From Candidatus Rokuibacteriota bacterium (GTDB taxonomy: Bacteria > Methylomirabilota > Methylomirabilia > Rokubacteriales > CSP1-6): a DNA stretch of 48,447 bases. Numbering within the stretch: position 1 is the first letter of the stretch; the number at the start of each line of letters is the position of its first letter. Shown one piece after another: positions 17,745 to 27,933 of this stretch. Position numbers and translations under genes: made by a program. The notes under the pieces are model-generated. The model was not told the DNA's origin, did not search any database, and saw nothing but the letters and a program-made list of their open reading frames with translations. The stretch lies in contig QHSA01000137.1 of the NCBI GenBank assembly GCA_003220315.1, positions 1 through 48,447 on the forward strand, read 5' to 3'.

Positions 17745-18164
17745 GTGAGCAACGCGAAGGTGGAGACGGTGCGGTCATCGAGCAGTGGCACCATCGGGCG
17801 GGCGCAGAGTATGGTGCGCGGCCAACGGCTCGTCCTGGACTCCTCAACCCGGCCTCAGCCGGACGCCCTGACCAACAGTGAGGCGTTCCTGGCCGGCATC
17901 TCCTCCTGCGGGGTCACGCTGATCGAGCAGCACGCGCAGGAGAGGGGCGTGCCGGTCAAGCGCCTGGAGGTTACGATCGAGGGAGTGCGGAGCGCCGCCG
18001 CGCCGAATCGCTTCGAGAGCATCAGCATGCACTTCACCATTGCTGGCGTCGGTCAGGCAGACGCCGAGCGGCTCGTCGAGACCTACCGGGAGCGCTGACC
18101 GCTCTATCGGACGGTCGCGGTCGCGACCACCGTCAAGGTCAACGTCGTCGCCGTCCCGGCCTAG
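17745..18164 (+). CDS. OsmC family thiol peroxidase, candidate selenoprotein (in-frame TGA at 18096)
   Basis: The frame starts at GTG 17745 (GGGGAGGAG about 5 bases upstream) and meets TGA at 18096-18098, codon 118. It then continues in the same frame for 21 codons to TAG 18162-18164. The downstream part (PLYRTVAVATTVKVNVVAV) is a normal OsmC C-terminus. The TGA falls where OsmC proteins have the second redox cysteine in a C-P-[LV] context. The first, Cys55 (GISSCGVTL), is present; spacing of 63 residues resembles E. coli OsmC (Cys59/Cys125). With selenocysteine the protein is 139 residues. A SECIS-like hairpin follows. The role would be organic or hydrogen peroxide reduction in the cytoplasm. 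The alternatives are a Cys-to-stop mutation or a sequencing error; a second such gene at 27103 makes these less likely. Confidence 0.78.
18113..18128 (+). promoter_or_regulatory. Candidate bacterial SECIS element of the OsmC gene
   Basis: GGTCGC (18113-18118) pairs perfectly with GCGACC (18123-18128) around the tetraloop GGTC (18119-18122). The loop starts 20 bases after the TGA, within the 16-37 range of the accepted bacterial SECIS model, and its first two bases are G. The E. coli fdhF minihelix has the same GGUC loop and a stem starting GGU and ending ACC. The bulged U of fdhF is not present here. Confidence 0.65.
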
Positions 18165-27102: not shown

Positions 27103-27597
27103 TCACTTCGGCGACTTCTTGTAGAACTGGACGAGGCCGAGGACGTCTTGCCAGATCAGGCGCCCGATCGGGCCCGAGCTATACTGTGACACCACGATCG
27201 TCCGGTCCGGACTCACGACGAAGCCGGTGGATTGCAAGATATTTCTCCGCTCCTCGTAGAAGGCCCCGAGCGCCGCCGCCGTCTCCTTCAACGGGAGCCC
27301 ATACCCGAGCGGGAACGTCAGGGAGTGTTCGCTCACCGTCTCCTTCGCCTTCTCCAAGGGATCGGTGGAGGCGGCGACCACCGCGATGCCTTCTTCCGCG
27401 AGCTTGGGCTGTGCCCGCTCGAAAGCAGCCAACTGCTGCTTGCAGTAGGGTCACCAGTGCGCGCGGTAGATCAGGAAGACTCCCCAGCCGTCGCCGAAGC
27501 GCTCGGGGACGCTGATTCGACCGTGGGAAACGGTGTCCATCGCAAGGGCCGGCAACCTCTCGCCGGCATCCAGAACCCGGGTTCCCGCTCTGGCCAT
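27103..27597 (-). CDS. Peroxiredoxin-like (AhpC/TSA) selenoprotein, in-frame TGA at 27451-27453
   Basis: The frame starts at ATG 27597 (AAAGGA about 8 bases upstream) and reads MARAGTRVLDAGERLPALAM to GVFLIYRAHW. It then meets TGA at codon 49 and continues in frame as PYCKQQLAAFERAQPKLAEEG for 115 more codons to the stop at 27103. In this Prx-like family the motif is HWCPYC, so the TGA stands exactly at the first cysteine of a CxxC, giving U49-P-Y-C52. Prx-like proteins with UxxC are an established selenoprotein group. The full product has 164 residues. It would reduce peroxides through a thioredoxin-fold active site. A hairpin immediately after the TGA fits a bacterial SECIS. Conventional calling would give two fragments split at this point. 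Confidence 0.88.
27423..27441 (-). promoter_or_regulatory. Candidate bacterial SECIS element of the Prx-like gene
   Basis: On the minus strand AAGCAGC pairs perfectly with GCTGCTT (7 bp) around the loop AGTTG (27430-27434). Sixteen bases separate the TGA from the loop, and G is the second loop base. Both satisfy the accepted bacterial SECIS rules. No bulged U is present in the stem. Confidence 0.6.
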
Positions 27598-27643: not shown

Positions 27644-27690
27644 GCGGAGAGAGGAATAGTATGCGTTCGCCGAGAAGGAGGTGAGCCCGG

Positions 27691-27933
27691 ATGGTCCGAC
27701 GCGTCCTCACCGTCGCCGCGGTTGTCTGCGCGCTGACCCTCGCCGCCGGGACGGGAGCCGTGGCCCAGCAGAAGGCCAACCCGTGCGCGGCGAAGAATCC
27801 CTGCGCGGTGAAAAACCCCTGCGCCGCGAAGAATCCTGCGAAGAAGGCGCTGAAAAAGGGCGAAGCCAAGCAGAACCCCTGCGCCGTGAAGAACCCGTGC
27901 GCGGCGAAGAATCCCTGCGCGGCGAAGAAGTAG
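27691..27933 (+). CDS. Small secreted protein with NPCA[AV]K repeats
   Basis: An 80-residue protein. Residues 1-26 are a signal peptide (VLTVAAVVCALTLAAGTGAVAQ). The mature part is six copies of the hexapeptide NPC-A-[AV]-K in two blocks of three, separated by a Lys-rich linker (NPAKKALKKGEAKQ). Each repeat has one Cys and one Lys, giving six evenly spaced cysteines. Metal binding or redox buffering in the periplasm is an inference from composition. I recognise no named family with certainty. AAGGAGGTGA (27675-27684), a 10-base match to the anti-Shine-Dalgarno, suggests strong translation. It diverges from the Prx-like selenoprotein gene. Confidence 0.75.
   Translation: MVRRVLTVAAVVCALTLAAGTGAVAQQKANPCAAKNPCAVKNPCAAKNPAKKALKKGEAKQNPCAVKNPCAAKNPCAAKK

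What the first reader, a model, noticed from the sequence alone, without database searches (positions are those of the whole stretch)
27103..27597. Peroxiredoxin-like gene split by TGA inside its CxxC: a U-P-Y-C selenoprotein
On the minus strand the frame ...VFLIYRAHW-TGA-PYCKQQLAAF... is continuous across the TGA at 27451-27453, with 48 codons before and 115 after. The family motif is HWCPYC, so the TGA is the first Cys of the CxxC. A 7-bp perfect hairpin (27423-27441) with loop AGTTG begins 9 bases after the TGA, placing its loop 16 bases away, inside the bacterial SECIS window. Standard gene calling yields two unrelated fragments here. Together with the OsmC case this implies that the organism decodes UGA as Sec and that several redox proteins may be mis-annotated.
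Basis: partly seen in the sequence, partly recalled or inferred. Interest (0 to 1): 0.9.

Follow-up and report, generated by a model that had tools for sequence, protein, structure and literature searches.

The report
Selenocysteine-containing peroxiredoxin-like redox protein
A bacterium of the Rokubacteria group carries a small antioxidant-type gene whose internal "stop" codon is almost certainly read as selenocysteine; it is a real but unsurprising new member of a selenoprotein family that was already predicted, and ordinary gene calling cuts it in two.

Summary
The minus-strand frame 27103-27597 encodes a 164-residue AhpC/TSA-fold protein (Pfam 67 bits) with an in-frame TGA (27451-27453) at the first position of a UPYC motif. 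The same genome (98% complete) has selA, selB, tRNA-Sec and selD; selD itself carries an in-frame TGA. The TGA is in register in 14 of 14 closer family members (window plus 13, 66-82% identity) and in five at about 40%. dN/dS is about as low after the TGA as before it, so this is no pseudogene. Cys homologues on plasmids have CPYC/CPFC at that place. A hairpin after the TGA fits the published bacterial SECIS model, and its rare codons (TTG, GCT) are fixed in 14 of 14 sequences. Only a 5-bp core of the reported 7-bp stem is conserved. The predicted fold is peroxiredoxin, but the peroxidase motif Pro and Thr are replaced by Arg and Sec, so a selenol/thiol-disulfide oxidoreductase is likelier than a classical peroxidase. 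A 2026 review (PMC13188914) already lists "Prx-like thiol:disulfide oxidoreductase, PF00578, UxxC/UxxU". New member of a known kind. Side finding: Nitrospinota/Tectomicrobia genomes carry tandem pairs, the second copy UPYU or UPYC.

The parts
27103..27597 (-). Prx-like selenoprotein gene, 164 residues, ATG start, TGA stop
   Evidence: Pfam AhpC-TSA 67 bits; relatives
27451..27453 (-). in-frame TGA read as selenocysteine (U49)
   Evidence: TGA in register in 14 of 14 closer family members and in the ~40% identical group; TGC in plasmid homologues
27442..27444 (-). TGC for Cys52, partner of Sec49 in the UPYC motif; aligned with the peroxidatic Cys of peroxiredoxins
   Evidence: alignment to LsfA 7kuu
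27423..27441 (-). SECIS-like hairpin (7 bp here; conserved core 27425-27439, loop AGUUG 27430-27434)
   Evidence: model constraints quoted from PMC13188914
27605..27611 (-). ribosome-binding site GAAAGGA, 7 nt before the ATG
   Evidence: sequence read directly; inference

Best explanation
A selenoprotein gene. The ribosome reads UGA 27451-27453 as selenocysteine with SelB and tRNA-Sec, directed by the hairpin right behind it. The product is a soluble peroxiredoxin-fold protein (no signal peptide apparent) with a UPYC redox motif. Sec49 is the nucleophile that attacks a disulfide or oxidised substrate and Cys52 resolves the selenenyl-sulfide, as in Sec-thioredoxins. Shown here: frame, homology, in-register TGA, machinery genes, fold prediction, conserved hairpin. 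Inferred: actual Sec insertion, the redox roles of Sec49 and Cys52, and the preference for disulfide exchange over peroxide reduction.
For: Machinery in the same genome: selB 364.9 bits, tRNA-Sec 69.8 bits, selA 499 bits, selD 337.5 bits with its own in-frame TGA. TGA in register: 14 of 14 closer family members and 5 of 5 at ~40%. dN/dS 0.06-0.24 after the TGA and 0.14-0.43 before it, against the window. Cys homologues CPYC/CPFC. Synonymous constraint: CAG CAG TTG GCT in 14 of 14, while TTG is 6.9% of Leu and GCT 3.8% of Ala codons elsewhere in these genes. The stem keeps pairing through G-C to U-A and A-U to U-A changes. Loop AGUUG, 16 nt spacing, 5-7 bp: within the bacterial SECIS model. Fold: pLDDT 93.7, peroxiredoxins as top PDB matches, TM 0.8. 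Motif aligned to Prx: Pro to Arg45, Thr to Sec49, peroxidatic Cys to Cys52.
Against: No expression or mass-spectrometry data. The assembly is a draft metagenome-like genome in 301 contigs. tRNA-Sec is near-universal in the relatives (51 of 60), so co-occurrence adds little; 13 of the 14 genomes with the gene show it, G011 does not. The Tectomicrobia/Nitrospinota copies L036 and L037 lack this hairpin. The peroxidase-versus-oxidoreductase call rests on motif alignment only.
Confidence: 0.95

Rival explanations
1. Pseudogene or sequencing error: a Cys codon (TGC/TGT) turned into TGA and the gene is dead or misread.
For: A single base change separates TGC from TGA; the assembly is a draft.
Against: The same TGA in many independently assembled genomes down to ~40% identity; purifying selection on the part after the TGA as strong as before; full Sec machinery.
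Confidence: 0.01
2. UGA is read as another amino acid genome-wide (code change) or by near-cognate read-through, not as Sec.
For: The frame is open under any sense reading of TGA.
Against: TGA is used as stop by this gene itself and by the neighbouring GFO/IDH oxidoreductase gene; the recoded TGA falls exactly on a catalytic Cys position; selABCD all present.
Confidence: 0.01
3. A true selenoprotein, but one that works mainly as a peroxidase: Cys52, which aligns with the peroxidatic Cys, or Sec49 attacks peroxides, and the other resolves.
For: Peroxiredoxin fold with Prx6/AhpC-type structures as best matches; Cys52 in register with the peroxidatic Cys.
Against: The PxxxTxxC peroxidase motif is RxxxUxxC here, invariant in 23 aligned sequences; in the profile alignment the Prx active-site Arg before the F-I-I-D strand has no Arg counterpart in the family (read by eye; inference).
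Confidence: 0.3

Closest known systems
Prx-like thiol:disulfide oxidoreductase selenoproteins (PF00578, UxxC/UxxU; Prx-like 1 of the GOS survey)
   Same: Same Pfam family, same motif type, Sec in the first position of UxxC, UxxU variants exist (PMC13188914, PMC2398784, PMC1088965)
   Different: I could not align it with the listed type sequence WP_010940744.1, so the subfamily match is by family and motif only; the papers read here do not describe it for Rokubacteria
SelL and SelL-related redox proteins (NCBIfam NF040769)
   Same: Trx/Prx fold; UxxU variants occur in the tandem paralogues of Tectomicrobia/Nitrospinota
   Different: 26.4 bits against a cut-off of 120; the window protein is UPYC, not UxxU
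Classical Sec-peroxiredoxin (TxxU)
   Same: AhpC/TSA fold, Sec-containing family members known
   Different: Sec sits three residues earlier, on the Thr position of PxxxTxxC; Cys is kept at the peroxidatic position
Cys homologues annotated 'peroxiredoxin family protein' (Deinococcus aetherius, Mycobacterium kansasii, Agrobacterium vitis plasmids)
   Same: 38-42% identity over the full length
   Different: CPYC or CPFC instead of UPYC

Membership tests
Bacterial selenoprotein | Sec machinery selA, selB, selC, selD in the genome | tested here: met
Bacterial selenoprotein | In-frame UGA conserved in relatives and aligned with Cys in homologues | tested here: met
Bacterial selenoprotein | SECIS behind the UGA: stem 4-16 bp, loop 3-9 nt, G in first two loop positions, spacing 16-37 nt, energy <= -7.5 kcal/mol (PMC13188914) | tested here: met
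   7 bp, AGUUG, 16 nt, -9.2 kcal/mol in the window; 5-bp core in the relatives
Bacterial selenoprotein | Sec actually incorporated | not testable with these tools
   needs protein
Prx-like thiol:disulfide oxidoreductase (PF00578, UxxC) | AhpC/TSA domain over cut-off with UxxC | tested here: met
   67 bits against 26; UPYC
Prx-like thiol:disulfide oxidoreductase (PF00578, UxxC) | Sequence grouping with the listed type member | not tested
   the sequence of WP_010940744.1 was not at hand
Classical peroxiredoxin | PxxxTxxC active-site motif | tested here: not met
   RxxxUxxC, invariant in A1
SelL-related redox protein (NF040769) | score over the curated cut-off of 120 bits | tested here: not met
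   26.4 bits

The most novel reading that the evidence does not exclude
The UPYC gene and its tandem UPYU/UPYC sister in Nitrospinota and Tectomicrobia form a redox relay in which a Sec-Sec or Sec-Cys pair, placed on the former Thr and peroxidatic Cys positions of a peroxiredoxin, does chemistry distinct from both peroxiredoxin and thioredoxin; Rokubacteria kept only the UPYC half.
Probability: 0.12. Interest if true: 0.5.

Novelty: new member of a known kind. Interest (0 to 1): 0.3.

Why it matters
The gene is invisible to standard annotation, and so are at least four others met here (selD and three OsmC genes) in one genome, so redox inventories of Rokubacteria are incomplete. A 2026 review reports a Methylomirabilota genome with 63 predicted selenoprotein genes (PMC13188914), so this fits a selenium-rich phylum. 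It does not change the picture of how selenoproteins are made.

Tried and rejected
Pseudogene or sequencing error: rejected by conserved TGA and dN/dS. Code change: rejected because TGA ends this gene and a neighbouring gene. Operon clue: neighbours of the window gene do not recur around the relatives at E <= 1e-4, so no function from context; one of the four neighbour queries (the region upstream) was translated in a wrong frame and is void. A hairpin-energy test per sequence was weak and uneven, and that script stopped with an error before the ~40% group. Co-occurrence with tRNA-Sec is uninformative, because nearly all relatives have it. A first tree was spoilt by mis-oriented rows; the second still holds one bad row (L118_UPYC), and only its broad grouping is used. 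Haft and Tolstoy 2025 is not held.

Full report
What is there. On the minus strand, window 27597-27106 encodes MARAGTRVLDAGERLPALAMDTVSHGRISVPERFGDGWGVFLIYRAHW-U-PYCKQQLAAF...QFYKKSPK, 164 residues with one internal TGA (27451-27453) and a TGA stop at 27103-27105. A conventional ORF list shows two fragments. The read-through protein matches AhpC-TSA at 67 bits against a cut-off of 26, and Redoxin at 38.6.

Machinery. The window is contig C190 of a 4.26 Mb, 301-contig genome, 98% complete. It holds selB over its curated cut-off (364.9 bits) and tRNA-Sec (69.8 bits, gathering 47) on contig C281, with selA between them (PF03841, 499 bits), and selD on C231 (337.5 bits) with one in-frame TGA, which lies in a ...CAGUASK... 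stretch at the expected SelD active site (position judged from my own knowledge of SelD). Named hits to the protein in another collection are Candidatus Rokuibacteriota, Tectomicrobia and Nitrospinae records. That the window itself is a Rokubacteria-type genome is an inference: L022 and L024 of its family give the same residue sequences as the named Rokuibacteriota loci L034 and L035.

Conservation. Of 95 genomes in the phylum, 20 hold a match at 1e-12. In the window and 13 relatives at 66-82% identity, and in five at about 40%, the codon at position 49 is TGA. One locus, L027, has a second TGA in place of Trp48. Against the window gene, dN/dS is 0.06-0.24 after the TGA and 0.14-0.43 before it: the part behind the 'stop' is under purifying selection. 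Plasmid homologues from Deinococcus, Mycobacterium, Agrobacterium and Lichenihabitans, 38-42% identical, have TGC there (CPYC, CPFC). In the tree all closer-family Sec forms group together (100/99), next to the Tectomicrobia/Nitrospinota forms (99/97) (one misread row, L118_UPYC, is to be ignored).

The hairpin. Behind the TGA the bases CAGCAGTTNGCTG are identical in all 17 distinct sequences, including the ~40% group. In the 14 closer sequences 56 degenerate codons code for an invariant residue, and only eight of them are codon-identical; four of those eight are consecutive and lie in the hairpin (CAG CAG TTG GCT). TTG makes up 6.9% of Leu codons and GCT 3.8% of Ala codons elsewhere in the same genes. 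This points to selection on the RNA. Two stem pairs change on both sides and still pair (G-C to U-A in five sequences, one event in a related group and tied to amino-acid changes; A-U to U-A in one), and slid controls give none. The 7-bp stem is not general: pair 14-30 fails in 12 of 17, leaving a 5-bp core. Loop AGUUG (G at position 2), 16 nt spacing and -9.2 kcal/mol for the 7-bp hairpin meet the bacterial SECIS model as stated in PMC13188914. Against codon redraws the window hairpin alone is only mildly unusual. Copies in L036 and L037 do not form it, so their SECIS must differ.

Fold and mechanism. AlphaFold2 on 23 aligned sequences gives pLDDT 93.7; the best PDB matches are Prx6- and AhpC-type peroxiredoxins, TM about 0.8. 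Aligned with LsfA and the Sulfolobus Prx, Cys52 falls on the peroxidatic Cys, Sec49 on the Thr of PxxxTxxC and Arg45 on its Pro. Sec49 is therefore in the place of the N-terminal nucleophilic Cys of thioredoxin-type CxxC proteins (established knowledge of the fold). I infer Sec49 attacks and Cys52 resolves, as a selenol/thiol-disulfide oxidoreductase; a peroxidase role stays open at about 0.3.

What is known. The Sargasso Sea survey described a Prx-like selenoprotein family with UXXC in place of TXXU (PMC1088965); the GOS survey lists Prx-like 1, pfam00578, UxxC (PMC2398784); the 2026 review lists Prx-like thiol:disulfide oxidoreductase, PF00578, UxxC/UxxU, and notes a Methylomirabilota genome with 63 selenoprotein genes (PMC13188914). 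The finding is a new member of that kind.

Beyond the window. In the phylum around L037, 17 of 18 genomes match, most of them with two neighbouring copies. In the pairs read, the first is UPYC and the second UPYU or UPYC. Two Sec in one motif might form a diselenide; that is not tested.

Noticed in passing
window 17862-18140 (+), TGA 18096-18098: OsmC-family gene with an in-frame TGA at ...ERUPLYRT..., which looks like the second conserved Cys of OsmC.
   Followed up: partly
L082 and L083 (own genome, contigs C111 and C92): Two further OsmC genes with an in-frame TGA (VAAVAGUMTGTL and VAAVAGUMYGTL); 3 of the 4 OsmC genes of the genome carry a TGA.
   Followed up: partly
L076 (own genome, contig C231:16606-17541): selD is itself interrupted by one TGA (...CAGUASK...), with a strong hairpin behind it.
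   Followed up: partly
L027 (G036), at the motif: Two TGA codons side by side (GH-TGA-TGA-PYC): Trp48 codon also reads TGA. Sequencing error, decay or a second Sec.
   Followed up: no
L036, L037, L114-L125: Tandem pairs of Prx-like selenoprotein genes in Tectomicrobia/Nitrospinota; the second copy is UPYU or UPYC.
   Followed up: partly
G001-G003 (same genus as the window): No match to the gene at 1e-15 although two of the three have tRNA-Sec: patchy distribution inside the genus.
   Followed up: no
window 27690-27900 (+): Divergent small ORF region that reads as a cysteine-rich repeat (NPCAAKNPCAVKNPC-like), by eye.
   Followed up: no
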